DNA of 64,000 nt from an uncultured Selenomonadales bacterium. Its GTDB lineage: Bacteria > Bacillota > Negativicutes > Selenomonadales > Selenomonadaceae. A program made the position numbers and the translations under genes. Below the pieces are notes generated by a model, which was given only the letters and a program-made list of their open reading frames with translations, ran no database searches and was not told the DNA's origin. The number at the start of each line of letters is the position of its first letter. Position 1 is the first letter of the stretch. The stretch lies in NCBI GenBank assembly GCA_946407095.1, contig CAMJMR010000003.1, positions 1 through 64,000 on the forward strand. Direction: 5' to 3'. Positions 7,184-40,402 of this stretch are shown piece after piece.

Positions 7184-7876
7184 GTGAGCAATACTTCAAA
7201 TTCGGAAGCCGAAAAGGGAAGTAAATTTTGGATGCAGAAAATTGTAAACGAAAATTCTTTCAAGGCGCGTTTGGAAGAATTTCTCGACGAAAAATTTTTG
7301 AACTTCTTCTGCCCGTTGCAAGCCGAAGCGTATAAAGAATATCAGCTTAAAGAGACGAAAATTATTTCCGAAGTACTCGGCTTGTCTCGTGAAGGTTTCA
7401 AAGAACGATTTTCTTTCTGGCCGACGAATCAGCCGCATTGGGACTCAATCGCATTGTCCGCCGACGGAAAAATTTTGTATCTGTTCGAGGCAAAAGCTCA
7501 TCCAAAAGAAATTTTCAGCAAAATCAGTGCCGTCAACTTAAACAGCATTGAAAAAATTACAAACTCCATGCGCACAGTTTTCGAGGAAATATCTGACGCG
7601 GATGAGAAAAATTTTGCCGCATGGCTGAACAAATATTATCAGCTCGGAAATCGATTCACTTTTTTGCATTTCATGAATCGAATGACGTTTCCCAAAATCA
7701 AACGCACAGTTTTGGTTTTGTTGAACATTACAGACGATAAAACTTATATAGCCACTTCCAAAGCGGATTGGGTTCGGCATTACGAAGAAATTTTTCAAGA
7801 GATGCTCGGTCAAAAAATTCCGCCGCCGAATGTGGAAATGATTTATTTTCCGGGCAACATTTCGCCTCCAAGATAA
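7184..7876 (+). CDS. Hypothetical protein (possible nuclease-like)
   Basis: GTG start behind AAAGGAG; the ORF track start at 7067 lies in a repeat/terminator and is unlikely; WDSIALS...LYLFEAKAH resembles a D-x(n)-ExK pattern. Confidence 0.65.
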   Translation: MSNTSNSEAEKGSKFWMQKIVNENSFKARLEEFLDEKFLNFFCPLQAEAYKEYQLKETKIISEVLGLSREGFKERFSFWPTNQPHWDSIALSADGKILYLFEAKAHPKEIFSKISAVNLNSIEKITNSMRTVFEEISDADEKNFAAWLNKYYQLGNRFTFLHFMNRMTFPKIKRTVLVLLNITDDKTYIATSKADWVRHYEEIFQEMLGQKIPPPNVEMIYFPGNISPPR

Positions 7877-7896
7877 AATCTGCCCATTAAACAAAA

Positions 7897-7926
7897 ATTC
7901 CCCGCCAATCGACGGGGATTTTTTTG
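7897..7926 (+). terminator. Intrinsic terminator
   Basis: ccccgccaatcgacggggattttttt. Confidence 0.75.
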
Positions 7927-8025
7927 AATTTAGAAACACGCAAGCATTTCGTTTCGGCGCGGCGATTTGCTGAAGTCACGGGCGATTGGACGCGCTAACT
8001 GTTCCGCCGCTTTTAAAGCGGCTTC

Positions 8026-33066: not shown

Positions 33067-33429
33067 TTACTCCGGCAAAACTTCAAGCCAGTAGCCGTCG
33101 GGGTCTTCGATAAAGTAAATTCCCATTTCGCGGTTTTCGTAGCAGATACAGCCCATCTTTTCGTGGCGAGCGTGCGCCGCAGCGAAATTTTTCGTCGTGA
33201 ACGCCAAATGTACTTCATTATCGCCCAATTCGTAGGGTTTTGTCCTGTTTTTGAGCCACGTAAGCTCCAATTTGTGGTGACTGCCGAACGAATCGCCTAA
33301 ATAAACGATTTTGAAGGCGTCGCCGCCGTCTATCCCGCCTACCTCGTGCAAATCGAGCGCGTCAGCGTAAAATTTCAGGCTCCGCTCCAAATCCAAGACG
33401 TTCAAGTTGTTGTGAGCGAATCGAAACAT
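33067..33429 (-). CDS. VOC/glyoxalase-family protein
   Basis: NLNVLDLERSLKFYADALDL...YFIEDPDGYWLEVLPE. Confidence 0.92.
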   Translation of the reverse strand: MFRFAHNNLNVLDLERSLKFYADALDLHEVGGIDGGDAFKIVYLGDSFGSHHKLELTWLKNRTKPYELGDNEVHLAFTTKNFAAAHARHEKMGCICYENREMGIYFIEDPDGYWLEVLPE

Positions 33430-33447: not shown

Positions 33448-34530
33448 TTAGTTTGACCGTTTAACGTTGTCGCCGTAAATCGTTTTGAAGTCGTCGCGCA
33501 TGGAAATTGTAATCCAGCCGTTCTTTTCCGCCAGCGAAATGCACTTGTTCGCCTTGTCGATGTTGCCGAGTTCGCGCTCCGTGTCGTCGCAGATGACGAA
33601 AAACGCCAAGCTCTTGTATTTGTTGCCCGCAAGCGCGTAATTCAGCATGGAAGTATCGCCGCCGCTGTTTCCGAACGCCAAAACCGGCTGCTTGCCAATT
33701 TCGTGCTCAATCGCAATGACTTTGTTCATTTTCAAGTTCTTTTGCGTGAGCCCGCCGCGAATCAGATAATCGTCTTGGCGATAGTTGTAATCGTCGGCGG
33801 ACTTGTCGCCCTGATTCGACGCAATTATCGCGGGATTGGTGCCGATAACGTTGTCGTAGGGGATTTTCAGCAGTTCCGAGGCCATGACGCGCGTTGCGGG
33901 ACGGTCGGAGCCCGTGACGATATAAACCGTGAAATTATTCGCCTGCAAGTACTTGATGACTTCAACCATCGGCAGATAGAACGCTTCGCCCCATTTTAAG
34001 TTCGTGAGGCCTTCGACGGGCTTTTTCATGAAGTTTTTGACGTAAACCTCGTAATCCTTGGGCGTCATGCCCGCGAAGACCGATTGTTGCGATTTTGCCT
34101 CGCCTAAATCGATACCCTTGGGGAATTTGCCCGTCATGAAGTGCCCGGCGCGAATTTCGGCGTCAACCATTTCCGCATAGGCTCTGTCTTCGGGCGAAGG
34201 CGTGTAATCGGGGTCGTTCAGCGCGCGTTCAAGGTACAACATCCACTCAAAGTAGCACGGCATCGACTCTCCGATAAAAGTTCCGTCCATATCGAAGACC
34301 GCCAATCTGTCCTCGACGGGGATAAAGTTTTTAGACTTCTTGTTCGTCACGTCGGTGACAAATTCGATTAATTTTTGCTTGGCAACGGCGTCCTTCGTCC
34401 AATACTTGAAATCTTTCGCCTTCTTGACTTGAATTTGAGCGATTTGGTCGCGGGGCATGGCGTCAGCCGCTCCGAACGTGCCAAAAGCGATTAATCCAGC
34501 CGTCAATGCCGCCAAAATCTTTTTACGCAT
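33448..34530 (-). CDS. Secreted HAD-family phosphatase, paralog 1
   Basis: Signal peptide; FDMDGTF, VTGSDRP, AFGNSGGDTSML. Confidence 0.88.
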   Translation of the reverse strand: MRKKILAALTAGLIAFGTFGAADAMPRDQIAQIQVKKAKDFKYWTKDAVAKQKLIEFVTDVTNKKSKNFIPVEDRLAVFDMDGTFIGESMPCYFEWMLYLERALNDPDYTPSPEDRAYAEMVDAEIRAGHFMTGKFPKGIDLGEAKSQQSVFAGMTPKDYEVYVKNFMKKPVEGLTNLKWGEAFYLPMVEVIKYLQANNFTVYIVTGSDRPATRVMASELLKIPYDNVIGTNPAIIASNQGDKSADDYNYRQDDYLIRGGLTQKNLKMNKVIAIEHEIGKQPVLAFGNSGGDTSMLNYALAGNKYKSLAFFVICDDTERELGNIDKANKCISLAEKNGWITISMRDDFKTIYGDNVKRSN

Positions 34531-34548
34531 GAAAACATCTCCCGAAAT

Positions 34549-35613
34549 TTATTTTGAAAGTTTAACGTTGTCGCCGTAAATCGTTTTGAAGTCGTCGCGC
34601 ATGGAAATTTTTATCCAGCCGTTGGCGTCGGCGAGCTTGATACATTTGTTCGCCTTGTCGATGTTGCCGAATTCGCGCTCCAAGTCGTCGCAGATGACAA
34701 AAAACGCCGCCGTCCGATATTTATTGCCGCGCAGAGAAAAATTTATCATCGAACTGTCGCCGCTGCTGTTTCCGAATGCCAAAACCGGTTTTTTGCCGAT
34801 TTCGCGCGCCATGTTGCTGACTTTGTTCATATTTATATCTTTGCTGACGAATTCGCCGCGCACGACCTTGTCTTCGGGCTTCAAAGTGTAGTCCATGCCG
34901 TCCGTGTCGCCTTGATTCGTCGCAACGTGTTTGTAGTCGGTGCCAATCATGTTGTCGCTGTCGACGGGCAAAATTTCGGCCGAAGTGCGCATATAGTCTC
35001 TGTCCGCGCCGCTAATCAGGAAAATTTTAAAATCGTTCGCCTTGAGATAAGAAATTACTTCAATCATCGGCAAATAGAAAGCCTCGCCGACTTTTAAGTT
35101 GTCAAAACCTTCGACGGGCGTGTTCAAGTAGTTTCGCGTGTAGGCGGCGTATTCGTCAGCAGTCATGCCCGCGAAGACCGACGCATTGGATTCGCAATGT
35201 TTACGGCGAACGTCGTTGGTCATCTTGCGGTTGTAAATCGCCGCTTTTACCGCCTCGCCGTTGGCTCTGTCCTGCGCGGAGGCAATGTAATTGGGGTCGT
35301 CAAGCGCGCGGTGCACGAACATCATAAAATCGAAACAGAACGGTGCAGTCTCGCAAGCAATGGTGCCGTCCACGTCGAAGACCGCGATTCTGTCGGCAAC
35401 TGGGATAAAATTTTTGCTGCGCTTGTTAGTTACGTCGGTGACGTATTCGACGAGCTTTTGTTTGGCAACGGAATCTTTAGCCCAGTATTTGAAATCCTTG
35501 GCGCGTTTGACTTGAATTTGAGCAATTTGGTCGCGGGGCATGGCGTCGACAACTCCGAACGTGCCAAAAGCGATTAATCCAGCCGTCAATGCCGCGCAGA
35601 TCTTTTTACGCAT
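34549..35613 (-). CDS. Secreted HAD-family phosphatase, paralog 2
   Basis: Near-identical signal peptide; FDVDGTI, AFGNSSGDSSMI; start chosen at MRKKICAALTAG. Confidence 0.88.
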   Translation of the reverse strand: MRKKICAALTAGLIAFGTFGVVDAMPRDQIAQIQVKRAKDFKYWAKDSVAKQKLVEYVTDVTNKRSKNFIPVADRIAVFDVDGTIACETAPFCFDFMMFVHRALDDPNYIASAQDRANGEAVKAAIYNRKMTNDVRRKHCESNASVFAGMTADEYAAYTRNYLNTPVEGFDNLKVGEAFYLPMIEVISYLKANDFKIFLISGADRDYMRTSAEILPVDSDNMIGTDYKHVATNQGDTDGMDYTLKPEDKVVRGEFVSKDINMNKVSNMAREIGKKPVLAFGNSSGDSSMINFSLRGNKYRTAAFFVICDDLEREFGNIDKANKCIKLADANGWIKISMRDDFKTIYGDNVKLSK

Positions 35614-35904
35614 GTTTTCATCACCTCGAAGCAAACTTTAGCAAAAAATTTTCGCGCCGTCAACGAAAAAACCCTCCGACACTTGCCGAAGGGCTTTTTG
35701 AATTCGGTTACGACTTTTACGACGAATTATCTAACGGTCGCGAATCAGACGTCGCAGAATTTTGGAATGAACCTTCCTTAGCTGCATACGGAACCATAAT
35801 CATCCACAGTAATCCTCTCCTTCCGCATTGTAATTAAGTGTTGCGGACATTATAAAAAAAAAAAAACGGCTGTCAAGACATTTTGAAAATATTTTTCCGA
35901 GTAA

Positions 35905-36052
35905 AAAAATCCGCTATGGCGGACGTTTGACTTGAAGAATCCGCTATGGCGGATTTTTACGCACGCTTTTAGCCATGTTCACAGCCGAAATTTAAAGAAT
36001 CGCGTCATGACGCCATTTGTTAATGTCATTTATCCGTTATAGCGGATTTTAA
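35905..36052. repeat. Palindromic iteron/operator-like repeats upstream of RepL-like ORF
   Basis: ATCCGCTATGGCGGA at ~35909 and ~35939; ATCCGTTATAGCGGAT at ~36032; related aaGAATCGCGTCATGACGCC at ~35996. Confidence 0.75.
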
Positions 36053-36132
36053 CTTTTGAGCCGTCAAATAGCCTTTCAAAACCCATTTCAGCGTGTTATA
36101 ATCAAAAAAATTGCTCTCGGAGGGGTTAAAGC

Positions 36133-36525
36133 ATGATTTTCGACGACGAACGCACGCTTCGTATCATAAATGACGCTCCAAACGCTCATATCATTAAAAT
36201 TTTCTTCTGGCTCGCCTTTCATCAGCCTCAAGACGGCATTTACGGCTACAAAATCACAAAATCACAGCTTGCAGGCGATTTAAACCTCGGCAGAACCGTT
36301 TTATTTGATTCTCTGCACTGGTTGAAGGATAATTTATTCATTCAAGAGCTAAAATTCATTGACGAATCCGATTTCATGGTTAATCCCAATGTCGTAATGA
36401 ATAATTCCGACCGTGAAGCACGAATTAAGGAATGGAATCGCCGTTGCAAGCTCGATATTCAACGAGAATTGCGTTTGAGGAAAGAAAAACGCCTTCGCGA
36501 GGCTAGAAAAGCAGATAAGCAATAA
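36133..36525 (+). CDS. RepL-like winged-helix protein (plasmid replication initiator-like)
   Basis: GYKITKSQLAGDLNLGRTVLFDSLHWLKDNLFIQE...DFMVNPNVVMNN...EWNRRC resembles Firmicute RepL-type initiators. Confidence 0.6.
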   Translation: MIFDDERTLRIINDAPNAHIIKIFFWLAFHQPQDGIYGYKITKSQLAGDLNLGRTVLFDSLHWLKDNLFIQELKFIDESDFMVNPNVVMNNSDREARIKEWNRRCKLDIQRELRLRKEKRLREARKADKQ

Positions 36526-36578
36526 AAAAACGGGCTTAACTCCGATTTTCGGAGCCAAGCCCTAATTTTTTTAGCGAA
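36526..36578. terminator. Bidirectional terminator
   Basis: aaaaaaacgggcttaactccgattttcggagccaagccctaattttttt. Confidence 0.75.
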
Positions 36579-36580
36579 AT

Positions 36581-37423
36581 TTACTTTTTCAAGCCGATGT
36601 GGGCAATCGTATCTTGATAATAGGGGTCGCTGAGCGCAACGCCTTCCGGTTGGTCGATTTTCGCGGGGATTAAAGCTGTGTCCTTGGGCACGCTGACCCA
36701 AAAGACGACGTCCGCGCCCTTAGACGAGAGAATCGACGCCCTTGCCGCGCTGTCGACGCTTACCAGTTCGATATTTTTGTTAATTCGCCGCGAAAGTTCA
36801 GCCAAAACCGCCGTGCTGAAGCCTGCGGGCGTTCCGTCCGCCAAAATCATATCGAACGGCGGCAAATCGCCCGTGACGGCAACTTTAATCGTGTCCGCGC
36901 CGTCGATGTGCGCTATCGGGACTGCGGGCGGCTCCGCGCCGTCCTTAAGGTCGGTAATGTACTTTTTCGACAAATTCACCAGCGTGCCGTCGTTCACCAT
37001 TGCCTTAATCGCCTTGTTCAATTCACGTTGCAACATGGTATCGCCCTCGCGCACGGCGAAGCAAAACGAATCGCTTAAAGACCTTTCGGCTGGCAGCGTC
37101 TCAAATTTTTCATTCCGTTGAATCATGTAATTGGCGACGTTTTGATAGGTGCTCAGCATGTCGATTTGCTTGGCGTCGGGCGCCATTTGCATATCGTTCA
37201 TCTTGTCGAAGTATTTGTATTCGGCTGGGCTTGCCTCTGACGGGCGATAGCTTTTGTCCAACTTGTTCATCAGGTTGTTGTATTCAATTTCGCTGGCGTT
37301 GAGGTGAGTTATGACGCCGATTTTCGTTTTGTCGGTGTCCTGCGCTGGTGCCGAGGCATTATCGCCGCCGCAACCCGTCATAAGCAGTGCCGCCGCGCAG
37401 ATTGCCGCAAAAAATTTCTTCAA
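36581..37423 (-). CDS. Extracellular solute-binding lipoprotein (amino-acid ABC PBPb-like)
   Basis: Lipobox ALLMTGCGGD; IKVAVTGDLPPFDMILADGTPAGFSTAVLAELSRRINKNIELV. Confidence 0.87.
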   Translation of the reverse strand: MKKFFAAICAAALLMTGCGGDNASAPAQDTDKTKIGVITHLNASEIEYNNLMNKLDKSYRPSEASPAEYKYFDKMNDMQMAPDAKQIDMLSTYQNVANYMIQRNEKFETLPAERSLSDSFCFAVREGDTMLQRELNKAIKAMVNDGTLVNLSKKYITDLKDGAEPPAVPIAHIDGADTIKVAVTGDLPPFDMILADGTPAGFSTAVLAELSRRINKNIELVSVDSAARASILSSKGADVVFWVSVPKDTALIPAKIDQPEGVALSDPYYQDTIAHIGLKK

Positions 37424-37580
37424 GATAAATCAGCTCCTCAAAATTATTTCGCCGATTATAACACATTGCGCAAAAAAAATCGCCATTCAATCGTTGCGAG
37501 CGAAAATTTTCCTTCGACAAACGAAAAAACCCTCCGACATTGTCGCCGAAGGGCTTTTGGTTAGATATTTGTGTCAGGGA

Positions 37581-37919
37581 TTATTTGATAATATTGGTTC
37601 CGTTGTCAGCGTCGAAATTCTTCCAGAATTCTTCGCGGGTGAGCAAGTTGCCTTGTTTGTCCTTGTAGATGTTGGCGTTGAGGAGACCGCCTTTGTCTTC
37701 GTAGCCCGCGTAGCCCATTTGGTGCAGTTTTTCGCGCACGGGAGCCGATTTCAATGCGTCATCTGCGCTCAAGAGGCCGCGTTTGTACAATTCGTTGCCG
37801 TCCGCGAAAGTTTCGAGCCTGTTGCCGCCCGCCACGTTGTCGAGTTCGTCGTCCTTGAGGATTTCGTCCTTCAAGATTGCGTCCTTCAAGATTGCGTCCT
37901 TCAAAATTGCGTTTGCCAT
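37581..37919 (-). CDS. Small protein with double-glycine (bacteriocin-type) leader
   Basis: MAN(AILKD)n...DDELDNVAGG|NRLETF...; GG-leader pattern; promoter/5'UTR nearly identical to that of 38122-38493. Confidence 0.65.
   Translation of the reverse strand: MANAILKDAILKDAILKDEILKDDELDNVAGGNRLETFADGNELYKRGLLSADDALKSAPVREKLHQMGYAGYEDKGGLLNANIYKDKQGNLLTREEFWKNFDADNGTNIIK
37857..37916 (-). repeat. 15-bp in-frame tandem repeat (ILKDA) in leader of GG-peptide gene
   Basis: gcgtccttcaagatt repeated about 4 times. Confidence 0.9.
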
Positions 37920-37934
37920 GGTTATCTGCGACCT

Positions 37935-38022
37935 TTCTTTTCATTTTTGATTGGCTGTTTGCCTTTCTGTAGCTTATACGTTGGAAAATCGATTTCGTTA
38001 CAGAGTTTAGCAGAAAATTTTT
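37935..38022 (-). promoter_or_regulatory. Upstream/5'UTR element of GG-peptide gene 1 (duplicated)
   Basis: tttttgattggctgtttgcctttctgt..cttatacg..gatttcgttaca..ttagcagaaaatttt; matches 38505-38594. Confidence 0.7.
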
Positions 38023-38121
38023 GTTTTGGCAACGAAAAAACCCTCCGACAACCGCCGAAGGGCTTTTTTTTGCAGATTTGCGACCGTGACGCCGAATTTT
38101 AGGCGAGCCGCGATTAATTTT

Positions 38122-38493
38122 TTAGTAATCGATTTTGGGCAACGGTTTTCCCAACTTATCGGCAACGATTTGGAATGCTTCTTGACGACTAATCTCTTTT
38201 CCGCCGGTGCCGGCTATGTAGTAGCGATTTTGCACTGCTCCCCAAGACTGTTCGACCCTTATTCCGAACTTGTCGAAGACATTTGCGACTTCACTTGCCG
38301 TTTTGTGGAAGGTGGGAATCCAGAAGCATTCCAACGCGCTTCTTCCCGAAATTCCGAGTCCCAATTCGTTGAGTGCGCGCGAATCGGCCGCCGTGTTGTT
38401 GTAAGTGCCGCCTGCGACCTGTTCGAGTTCGTCATCGCTCATTGCTTCGAGCCCCGCGTTGATTTTTTTGATGTTTTCCTCTCTGTTTGCCAT
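38122..38493 (-). CDS. Small protein with double-glycine (bacteriocin-type) leader
   Basis: MANREENIKKINAGLEAMSDDELEQVAGG|TYNNTAADS...; canonical DDELEQVAGG leader end. Confidence 0.75.
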   Translation of the reverse strand: MANREENIKKINAGLEAMSDDELEQVAGGTYNNTAADSRALNELGLGISGRSALECFWIPTFHKTASEVANVFDKFGIRVEQSWGAVQNRYYIAGTGGKEISRQEAFQIVADKLGKPLPKIDY

Positions 38494-38504
38494 GGTTATC
38501 AGTC

Positions 38505-38594
38505 TCCTTTTGATTTTTTGATTGGCTGTTTGCCTTTCTGTCCCTTATACGCGGGAAGACTGATTTCGTTACACGGCTTAGCAAAAAATTTTCA
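38505..38594 (-). promoter_or_regulatory. Upstream/5'UTR element of GG-peptide gene 2 (duplicated)
   Basis: ttttttgattggctgtttgcctttctgt..cttatacg..gatttcgttaca..ttagcaaaaaatttt. Confidence 0.7.
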
Positions 38595-39668
38595 GTTGGC
38601 AAGCCTGACGTTGTCGCCGTAAATGGTTTTGAACTCATCGCGCATGGAAATGGGGTTCCAACCGCGCTTGAGAGCCAAAGCCGTATCGTTTGCCGCGCGC
38701 TTGGGGTTGCCGAGTTCGCGGGTCGTGTCGTCGCATATCACGAAGAACGACATCGAGCGATATTTGTTGTCTTGGAGCGTGTATTCGAGCATTCCGCTGT
38801 CGCCGCCGCTGTTTCCGAACGCAAGGACGGGTTTTTTGCCGATTTGATTCATTATGGAAAAGATTTTTATGGTTTTGGCGTTATCAAGCAGCGGCTTGCC
38901 CGAAATGACGATTTTTTCTTTGAAACGGTCGAAGAAATGGTCGTGCGGATTATCTTTTCCCATATTTGTCGACGTGTAATTGAAGTCGGAGCCGAGAATT
39001 CTGTCGAATTGAATGGGAATGACGCCGTTTACGAGTTCGCGCGTGGTTGAAACGCCGCAAGCCGAGTCAATGTAGACCGCGAAGCCGTTGTTGGTCAAGT
39101 AGGACATAATTTCGACCATGGGCAGATAAAACGCCTCACCGCGCTTGAGATTTGTAAAGCCGTCTTCGTCAGTTTGCATGAAATTGCGGACGTAAGCGCG
39201 ATATTCATCGTCAGTCATACCGGCATAAACCGCAGTGAGCCCTTCAAAGTAATTTTTACTTTCTGATGGCGTTAATTTTTGTTTCGCGTAGACTTTCGGC
39301 CTAATTTTCTTGGCAAGGGTGAGATATTTCTTCGGCGCGGTGTAATTCGGGTCGTCAAGGACGCGGTGAAGGAACATCGCCTCTTGAAAGTAAATGGGCG
39401 CGGTTTCGCAGTAAAAAGTTCCGTCCATGTCGAAGGTCGCGATACGATCTTCTGGCGGAATGTAGTTTTGACTGCGCGGATTAGTGACATCCTCGACGAA
39501 TTCGGTAATTATGCGCTTAGTGGGCGAGTCGTCGTTCCAAAATTGGAAATCGGCGGCGGTTTGGACGTTGATAGCGGCGATTTCGGAGCGAGAGGCGGCA
39601 TTTGACGCGTTGAACGAGCCAAAAGCGATTAAACCCGCCGCGAGAGCCGCCAAAAGTTTTTTCTTCAT
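38592..39668 (-). CDS. Secreted HAD-family phosphatase, paralog 3
   Basis: Signal peptide; FDMDGTFYCETAPIYFQEAMFLHRVLDDPNYT; AFGNSGGDSGML. Confidence 0.88.
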   Translation of the reverse strand: MKKKLLAALAAGLIAFGSFNASNAASRSEIAAINVQTAADFQFWNDDSPTKRIITEFVEDVTNPRSQNYIPPEDRIATFDMDGTFYCETAPIYFQEAMFLHRVLDDPNYTAPKKYLTLAKKIRPKVYAKQKLTPSESKNYFEGLTAVYAGMTDDEYRAYVRNFMQTDEDGFTNLKRGEAFYLPMVEIMSYLTNNGFAVYIDSACGVSTTRELVNGVIPIQFDRILGSDFNYTSTNMGKDNPHDHFFDRFKEKIVISGKPLLDNAKTIKIFSIMNQIGKKPVLAFGNSGGDSGMLEYTLQDNKYRSMSFFVICDDTTRELGNPKRAANDTALALKRGWNPISMRDEFKTIYGDNVRLAN

Positions 39669-39751: not shown

Positions 39752-40402
39752 TCAGCCGATTTTGGCGGTGTGCACGACTTTGTAGCCGCGTTCTTCGAGA
39801 ATTTTTTTTATGTCGTCGAAACCTTCGGGGCGGTCGTCGAGGCGCACAACGAGTTCATAACGATTATTTTTGTGGCGGCACGTGATAAAACTGTCAATGT
39901 TGATGCCTTTGTCCGCGAAAATTTTTGTTATCTCCGCCATGACGCCGACTTTGTTATCGACTTCCAACGTTAAGCGGGTTTTGCCGCCGATAAGCCCCAT
40001 GACTTTGATAAACGTCTTGAGGATATCGGTCGCGGTGATGATTCCGACGAGCGCACCGACATCCGACAGCACGGGCAGGCCGCCGACTTTATTTTGATAC
40101 ATGATTAACGCCGCCTCTTCGATTGTCGCGCCTTCGTTTACCGTGATAACTTTGTCGTGCATGATGTCTTTGACGGAAATTTTGTCTAGCAGCGAGCGAA
40201 TTTCAAATTTCGACAGCGTAGTAGCGGGGCTGGGCGCCACGCGCATGATATCGCGGTCGCTGAAGTAGCCGACGAGCTTTCCGTCGTCGACGACGAGCAT
40301 TCTGTGGAACTTGTACTTTTTCATCAGCCTGTCCGCCTGCTGAATCGTCGCGTCGCTTGAAACGTACACGGGGTGCTTTGTCATTCTTGACGCCACAAAC
40401 AT
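39752..40402 (-). CDS. CBS-domain pair plus ACT-like domain protein (AcuB-like)
   Basis: Two CBS motifs (YFSDRDIM, VGIITATDIL) and C-terminal VMAEITKIFADKGINIDSF. Confidence 0.87.
   Translation of the reverse strand: MFVASRMTKHPVYVSSDATIQQADRLMKKYKFHRMLVVDDGKLVGYFSDRDIMRVAPSPATTLSKFEIRSLLDKISVKDIMHDKVITVNEGATIEEAALIMYQNKVGGLPVLSDVGALVGIITATDILKTFIKVMGLIGGKTRLTLEVDNKVGVMAEITKIFADKGINIDSFITCRHKNNRYELVVRLDDRPEGFDDIKKILEERGYKVVHTAKIG

What the first reader, a model, noticed from the sequence alone, without database searches (positions are those of the whole stretch)
33448..39668. Double-glycine-leader small proteins embedded among three secreted HAD-phosphatase paralogs
Seen: two minus-strand ORFs (37581-37919, 38122-38493) with leaders ending DDELDNVAGG and DDELEQVAGG, and homologous-looking C-termini (KQGNLLTREEFWKNFDAD / GGKEISRQEAFQIVADKLG). 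They are flanked by three signal-peptide HAD phosphatases (33448, 34549, 38592), a solute-binding lipoprotein and a RepL-like ORF. Established: GG leaders are cleaved by C39-peptidase ABC exporters. Inference: an undescribed secreted peptide/bacteriocin-like locus whose cargo domains (~80-90 aa) do not look like known bacteriocins. The exporter is not in this window.
Basis: partly seen in the sequence, partly recalled or inferred. Interest (0 to 1): 0.72.

Follow-up and report, generated by a model that had tools for sequence, protein, structure and literature searches.

The report
ECF-controlled exported small-protein family, Quinella
Two small genes next to phosphatase genes in an uncultured rumen bacterium belong to a large, scattered family of exported small folded proteins that share a leader, their own promoter type, a matching sigma factor and an exporter; what the released proteins do is unknown.

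Summary
The ORFs are real. GG1 (37581-37919) and GG2 (38122-38493) carry double-glycine leaders, and their cargos are homologous (hhalign 94%). The window is a Quinella MAG (uncultured rumen Selenomonadaceae).

The unit is not this locus but a dispersed gene set, each gene with its own promoter TGTAAC-N16-CGTATA, an ECF-sigma-type site: 350 sites in 60 genomes versus 8 for the reversed control. In four genomes 53 of 64 sites lie directly upstream of VxGG-leader ORFs. An ECF sigma gene, often beside the exporter, has the same promoter type just downstream in 11/11 genomes, and promoter type changes with ECF clade. The ~90-aa cargo is a confidently predicted fold (pLDDT 94.5) without Pfam or PDB match, found in 8 Selenomonadaceae genera.

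The HAD neighbourhood is a conserved block that often holds GG cassettes (11/35 loci, 1.1 expected), but most cassettes lie elsewhere and the HAD genes in the window lack the promoter. "Bacteriocin" is unproven: no attached immunity gene, no modifying enzyme, few Cys. Regulation and export are inferred from sequence; function is open.

The parts
38122..38493 (-). GG2 precursor, 123 aa: 29-aa double-glycine leader + 94-aa cargo
   Evidence: cargo AlphaFold2 pLDDT 94.5, pTM 0.86
38407..38493 (-). GG2 leader MANREENIKKINAGLEAMSDDELEQVAGG; predicted cleavage after GG
   Evidence: sequence; weak match to the C-terminal end of TIGR03798 Nif11 leader (E 0.0095)
38122..38406 (-). GG2 cargo, ~90-aa domain without library match (three helices, two strands, helix)
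   Evidence: no Pfam match (58), no significant PDB sequence match (56), no PDB or viral fold match at E<=0.001 (66, 67)
38545..38573 (-). GG2 promoter TGTAACGAAATCAGTCTTCCCGCGTATAA (TGTAAC-N16-CGTATA, ECF type)
37581..37919 (-). GG1 precursor, 112 aa: 32-aa leader with tandem ILKDA/E repeats + 80-aa cargo
   Evidence: 25 distinct forms of this subfamily, median dN/dS 0.23
37824..37919 (-). GG1 leader MANAILKDAILKDAILKDEILKDDELDNVAGG
   Evidence: sequence
37581..37823 (-). GG1 cargo, FWKNFD subfamily of the same domain
   Evidence: hhalign to the rest of the family: probability 94.4%, E 8.8e-8
37974..38002 (-). GG1 promoter TGTAACGAAATCGATTTTCCAACGTATAA (ECF type)
37525..37558 (-). Intrinsic-terminator-like hairpin closing the GG1 cassette
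   Evidence: such hairpins are not in excess over shuffles in this region
38031..38064 (-). Terminator-like CCCTTCGGCGGTTGTCGGAGGG-TTTTTT between GG2 and the GG1 promoter
   Evidence: seen by eye; not reported by the scan
38592..39668 (-). Secreted HAD-like paralog 3, directly upstream of the GG2 cassette
   Evidence: HAD3 followed by a GG-type promoter also in L375 and L379
34549..35634 (-). Secreted HAD-like paralog 2
33448..34530 (-). Secreted HAD-like paralog 1
36581..37423 (-). SBP_bac_3 lipoprotein of the same conserved block
39752..40402 (-). CBS-ACT protein at the upstream end of the conserved block
33067..33429 (-). Glyoxalase-family protein at the downstream end of the block
36133..36525 (+). 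'RepL-like' ORF; a homolog lies in the same block in G066
   Evidence: no family match; 70% identical copy in L376

Best explanation
GG1 and GG2 are two members of a genome-dispersed exported-protein regulon. Step 1 (inferred): an ECF sigma factor (own genome C42:20087-20611; beside the exporter in several relatives) reads a TGTAAC-N16-CGTATA promoter that stands in front of each gene. Step 2 (read from sequence): each gene makes a precursor with a double-glycine leader of mostly 22-32 aa and a cargo, most often a ~90-aa domain; the cargo fold is a confident prediction, not a solved structure. Step 3 (inferred from family knowledge): an NHLM-type exporter (C39-peptidase ABC1 + ABC2 + HlyD + TolC) removes the leader after Gly-Gly and moves the small protein across both membranes. 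Step 4 (guess): outside, the proteins act on neighbours or on the cell surface; I hold interaction with other microbes as somewhat likelier than envelope maintenance or signalling. The HAD block is a recurrent place where such cassettes sit, not part of the machinery. The confidence given is for steps 1-3.
For: Exporter: own genome C1 has NHLM HlyD (222.9 bits, cut-off 156.2), ABC1 with C39 (972, cut-off 853.3), ABC2 (733.1, cut-off 709.4) and a TolC-like protein in a row. Leader-exporter link: Nif11-type precursors lie beside the NHLM exporter in G024 and G036 (one tested in G024 is above the TIGR03798 cut-off, the G036 one is below it) and end in the same acidic LE-VAGG box; one GG precursor sits beside the own C7 exporter; Haft 2010 (PMC2887384) ties this exporter to Nif11 and NHLP leaders. 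Promoter: 350 matches against 8 reversed-control matches in 60 Quinella genomes; with the spacer left free at 11-15, 10 of 11 matches in 21 genomes have exactly 13; in own genome all 6 exact matches precede GG-leader ORFs; in 40 sampled regions 53 of 64 sites lie upstream (10-92 bp) of VxGG-leader ORFs, 3 more of VAAA/CGA variants. ECF: confirmed by Pfam and NCBIfam; on the same contig within about 3 kb of an NHLM exporter in 8 genomes, plus a frameshifted copy at own C7; in 11 of 11 genomes with an ECF of 74% identity or more, the same promoter type (spacer 16 in nine, 17 in two) follows the ECF gene and drives a ~60-aa peptide ending in a VAAAG-like box. Promoter type follows ECF clade: 74% or more = TGTAAC..CGTATA; 56-58% = TTAAY..CGTATA (G018 mixed); 48-51% = TGTCAT..CATATA. 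Co-occurrence in 37 Quinella genomes: ECF with NHLM P=1.4e-4, ECF with GG P=0.006. Folded cargo.
Against: No transcript, sigma-binding, cleavage or secretion data. Genomes are MAGs (59-100% complete); five GG-bearing genomes show no NHLM ABC1 match and five lack the ECF, which I attribute to incompleteness without proof. The raw NHLM-GG co-occurrence is only P=0.067, and none of these tests corrects for shared ancestry. ECF clade and promoter type both follow phylogeny, so their match is not independent proof. A few promoters drive Sec-secreted or lipoprotein genes instead. One own-genome GG gene (C60) has a sigma-70-like instead of the ECF-type site.
Confidence: 0.75

Rival explanations
1. 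Classical unmodified class II bacteriocins: the mature cargos kill close relatives.
For: GG leader with weak matches to Bacteriocin_IIc, cerein-7B and cyanobacterial CTB leader models; arrays of diverged paralogs; one subfamily with median dN/dS 1.2.
Against: Those matches lie in the leader; the cargo matches nothing. No attached immunity gene; cassettes are single genes with their own promoter. Cargo is a ~90-aa folded domain with mean net charge about zero, not a short cationic peptide. The GG1 subfamily is conserved across species (25 forms, median dN/dS 0.23), unlike a strain-variable toxin.
Confidence: 0.2
2. Precursors of modified peptides (RiPPs): the cargo is enzymatically altered before export, as in NHLP/Nif11 systems.
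For: NHLM exporter and Nif11-type leaders; one radical SAM gene about 1.4 kb upstream of the own C1 NHLM HlyD gene.
Against: No modifying enzyme beside the cassettes mapped; the radical SAM gene is not kept beside the exporter in the relatives mapped, apart from one weak distant match; cargo has about one Cys and 30% have none; a stable folded domain is an unlikely RiPP core. A genome-wide search for LanM or YcaO enzymes was not run.
Confidence: 0.15
3. The GG genes and the secreted HAD phosphatases form one functional unit.
For: 11 of 35 HAD loci lie within 3 kb of a GG-type promoter, 1.1 expected; HAD3 followed by a GG-type promoter and then the SBP gene in L375 and L379.
Against: The linked loci are largely one orthologous block, so not independent; cassette position and type vary within it; the window's HAD genes lack the promoter; GG genes occur without HADs (G026, G027) and HADs without GG genes.
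Confidence: 0.12
4. The exported products serve mainly as signals, with the ECF-adjacent VAAAG peptide and the short-cargo members as pheromones.
For: Short cargos conserved across species (FYARSNGGD..., QIPMIKEPP...); conserved ECF-promoter-small peptide unit in 11 genomes.
Against: The VAAAG peptide has no family match and its tail varies; it could equally be an anti-sigma peptide; ~90-aa folded members would be unusual pheromones.
Confidence: 0.15

Closest known systems
NHLM export system with NHLP / Nif11-leader (N11P) precursors (Haft et al. 2010, PMC2887384; TIGR03794/03796/03797/03798)
   Same: Same exporter families above curated cut-offs, same leader end (acidic-Leu...VAGG), large paralogous precursor families with conserved leader and variable cargo.
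   Different: Leader of the window genes is much shorter and fails the Nif11 cut-off (16.2 against 32.3 bits); cargo is a folded ~90-aa domain poor in Cys; no modification genes beside the cassettes; genes dispersed under an ECF-type promoter.
Cyanobacterial double-glycine 'bacteriocin' clusters with C39 transporters (Wang et al. 2011, PMC3140520; CTB family NF038167)
   Same: C39 ABC + HlyD and many GG precursors (28-164 aa) with little cargo conservation; weak similarity to NF038167 in 24 of 50 members.
   Different: Those precursors were sought within 20 kb of the transporter clusters; here most are far from the exporter and marked by their own promoter. The word 'sigma' does not occur in that paper's text.
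ECF sigma regulons of the SigW/SigX/SigM type (promoters such as TGAAAC-N16-CGTA; own knowledge, not looked up)
   Same: Promoter layout TGTAAC-N16-CGTA and an ECF sigma gene with the same promoter beside it.
   Different: The regulon consists mainly of GG-leader precursors; no known ECF group was assigned here.

Membership tests
NHLM export system (exporter) | HlyD (TIGR03794), C39-ABC1 (TIGR03796) and ABC2 (TIGR03797) above curated cut-offs, adjacent | tested here: met
   Own genome C1: 222.9/156.2, 972/853.3, 733.1/709.4 bits
Nif11-leader precursors (TIGR03798 / PF07862) | Leader scores above the curated cut-off | tested here: not met
   GG2 16.2 bits against 32.3, GG1 none; true Nif11 leaders occur elsewhere in the genus
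NHLP/Nif11 RiPP precursors | Cargo rich in Cys/Ser/Thr and a modifying enzyme nearby | tested here: not met
   Cys mean 1.16 per cargo, 30% none (Ser/Thr not counted); no enzyme next to the cassettes mapped
Class II bacteriocins (Bacteriocin_IIc, cerein 7B, CTB) | Family model above cut-off over leader and core | tested here: not met
   For GG1 and GG2 only weak leader matches below cut-off; no Pfam match for any of 41 cargos
Class II bacteriocins | Killing activity and immunity protein | not testable with these tools
   No immunity gene seen beside the cassettes mapped; activity needs a bench test
C39-processed GG precursors | Cleavage after Gly-Gly by the C39 domain | not testable with these tools
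   Motif and exporter present; no biochemical data
ECF sigma regulon | ECF sigma factor protein | tested here: met
   Sigma70_r2 and r4_2 above cut-off; TIGR02937 129.1 bits against 42.9 for own C42
ECF sigma regulon | Shared two-part promoter with fixed spacing before target genes and at the sigma locus | tested here: met
ECF sigma regulon | Sigma factor shown to transcribe from these promoters | not testable with these tools
   Only clade-promoter matching

The most novel reading that the evidence does not exclude
Quinella and relatives run a dedicated ECF sigma factor that controls a dispersed set of C39/NHLM-exported small folded proteins of a new fold family: a secretome in which leader, promoter, sigma factor and exporter stay matched while the cargo is swapped, used for something other than killing (for example surface coating, nutrient capture or contact with protozoa and other rumen microbes).
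Probability: 0.35. Interest if true: 0.8.

Novelty: new variant of a known kind. Interest (0 to 1): 0.63.

Why it matters
Quinella is an iconic rumen genus without cultures, found at raised abundance in some low-methane sheep; the text of its genome paper (PMC9585023) does not mention bacteriocins or Nif11 proteins. If true, it gains a predicted exported secretome of around ten proteins per genome. The promoter-sigma-leader-exporter match gives a simple rule for finding GG-leader proteins that do not lie next to an exporter, where neighbourhood-based searches would miss them. The cargo is a domain without library match that spans 8 genera, including a Selenomonas ruminantium MAG; cultured strains of that species, if they carry it, would allow a direct test.

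Tried and rejected
HAD as partner: first dismissed after reading hit lists by eye, then counted (11/35 linked against 1.1 expected), so I withdrew the dismissal; the linkage is real but mainly one conserved block. RepL: no family support. Fold search of full-length and cargo-only models gave nothing at E<=0.001 in PDB, nor did the cargo model in viral models; PDB sequence search gave at best E 0.59 and PHROGs one weak hit in three members. GG1 homology by profile against sequence was inconclusive and was settled by profile-profile. The C39-like ABC transporters on C33 were considered as exporter and set aside: the one tested matches HlyB type TIGR01846 rather than NHLM. dN/dS is mixed (0.13 to 1.2), so no selection claim is made for the family as a whole. 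Literature: no paper found joining ECF sigma, double-glycine leaders and Selenomonadaceae (open-licence library only, so absence is weak).
Full report
Observation. GG1 is 37581-37919 (-), leader MANAILKDAILKDAILKDEILKDDELDNVAGG; GG2 is 38122-38493 (-), leader MANREENIKKINAGLEAMSDDELEQVAGG. The three secreted HAD-like paralogs and the SBP lipoprotein are confirmed, with one HAD only weakly matched by Pfam but 47% identical to the others. The RepL label is not supported by any library used.

Where it comes from. The window is contig C3 of a 2.6 Mb, 101-contig genome, 89% complete. Close relatives by protein are titled Quinella sp. and Selenomonadaceae MAGs from rumen and gut of sheep, goat, buffalo and deer, so the genome is read as a Quinella species (inference from hits; no formal classification was run).

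A large family. GG2 alone finds homologs in 24 of 37 sampled Quinella genomes, commonly in tandem arrays. From the first loci fetched I extracted 59 long and 21 short members. Leaders come as MATREENLKKINDELEKLSDEELEQVAGG, as the shorter MAKEILKDEILKDEELDNVAGG, and as true Nif11 leaders. Mean pairwise identity is 65% in the leader and 25% in the cargo. A cargo-only profile hits 71 of 381 genomes of the class, all inside the own family and spread over 8 genera.

Cargo. The GG2 cargo is predicted with pLDDT 94.5 and pTM 0.86 as three helices, two strands and a helix. It has no match in Pfam, no significant match in PDB sequences and none in PDB and viral fold libraries at E<=0.001. GG1 belongs to a well-conserved FWKNFD subfamily that aligns with the rest at 94.4% probability.

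Exporter. The genome encodes a complete NHLM exporter plus TolC on C1, all three NHLM parts above curated cut-offs, and a second set on C7 whose ABC1 is split. In relatives, Nif11-type precursors sit directly beside NHLM exporters, one of them above the TIGR03798 cut-off, and one GG precursor sits beside the C7 set. Haft et al. (PMC2887384) linked this exporter to NHLP and Nif11 leaders. That NHLM exports GG1 and GG2 is therefore an inference from matching leader ends and presence in the genome.

Promoter. The two genes share an upstream element, TGTAACGAA-N13-CGTATAA, which is TGTAAC-N16-CGTATA, the layout of ECF sigma promoters of the SigW/SigX kind (own knowledge). With the spacer left free between 11 and 15, ten of eleven matches in 21 genomes have exactly 13. 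All six exact own-genome matches precede GG-leader ORFs. With one mismatch allowed there are 350 matches in 60 Quinella genomes against 8 for the reversed pattern (sums by me). Of 64 matches in 40 regions of four genomes, 53 precede VxGG-leader ORFs, 3 precede VAAA or CGA variants, 4 precede Sec-secreted or lipoprotein genes and 4 have no ORF (the strict regex counted 50, three more VVGG or VAGG were added by eye). With one mismatch the own genome has 11 sites: seven before GG precursors (C3 twice, C18, C21, C31, C39, C64), two before ORFs with CGA or TGS leader ends (C4, C35), one before the ECF-adjacent VAAAG peptide (C42) and one unresolved (C79).

Sigma factor. An ECF sigma factor sits near NHLM exporters in G016, G035, G032, G028, G002, G033, G007 and G031. 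In all eleven genomes whose ECF is at least 74% identical to the G016 one, the gene is followed by the same promoter type (spacer 16 in nine, 17 in two) and a ~60-aa peptide ending in a VAAAG-like box. Genomes with ECFs of 56-58% identity have GG promoters TTAAY..CGTATA (G018 also has one TGTAAC type), and those at 48-51% have TGTCAT..CATATA. ECF occurs with NHLM (P=1.4e-4) and with GG genes (P=0.006) in 37 genomes, ignoring ancestry; the near-complete genomes G003, G004 and G006 lack GG homologs, the ECF and NHLM ABC1 above cut-off alike. These lines agree, but none is a direct test, and clade matching also follows phylogeny.

The HAD question. The order CBS, HAD3, GG cassettes, SBP, HAD2, HAD1, glyoxalase recurs in part in relatives. 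In 22 genomes, 11 of 35 HAD loci have a GG-type promoter within 3 kb, 1.1 expected (two promoters of G015 were not listed, and shared ancestry is not corrected). The window's HAD genes lack the promoter, and most GG cassettes are elsewhere. I read this as a conserved block into which cassettes were placed, not as a functional partnership.

What is shown and what is not. Shown by computation: the ORFs, the family, the predicted cargo fold, the exporter genes, the promoter motif and its targets, the ECF gene and its position. Inferred: that the ECF reads the promoter and that NHLM cleaves and exports. Unknown: function outside. Bacteriocin and RiPP readings are possible but lack their defining marks here.

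Noticed in passing
L257 2290-2484 (+); own genome C42 (L360, minus strand, about 7690-7940): A ~60-aa ORF with conserved MTxEERFxQxDFSQFSKxKDSLLxRLKLRRRAINEEMSLDELDxVAAAG and a variable tail follows the ECF gene under the same promoter type in 11 genomes; pheromone precursor or anti-sigma peptide are both possible.
   Followed up: partly
own genome C7 (L049 6366-14880): Second NHLM set: ABC1 split into two frames, an ECF sigma split into two frames, then an intact Nif11-like GG precursor, all next to a BamA-like ORF. Decay or assembly error not resolved.
   Followed up: partly
window about 35900-36050: Repeats ATCCGC(C/T)ATA(G/A)CGGAT upstream of the RepL-like ORF 36133-36525; operator-like or iteron-like palindromes.
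   Followed up: no
L217 (G023 C23), L246 (G066 C43), L227 (G030 C94), L245 (G066 C18): The same ECF-type promoter also precedes a Sec-secreted small protein (MKKAFSI...) and a TPR-like lipoprotein, so the regulon is not only GG precursors.
   Followed up: no
L066, L032, L038, L058, L060; L370, L250: Short-cargo members with peptides conserved across species, such as FYARSNGGD..., and QIPMIKEPP... after a leader ending in CGA.
   Followed up: no
window 37824-37919: GG1 leader carries four tandem ILKDA/ILKDE units; relatives usually have one or two.
   Followed up: no
family members with TAGDTRFLNDLAGL (L058, L061, L062 and others): Median dN/dS about 1.2 over 36 pairs, against 0.13-0.36 in three other subfamilies; gene conversion among paralogs not excluded.
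   Followed up: no
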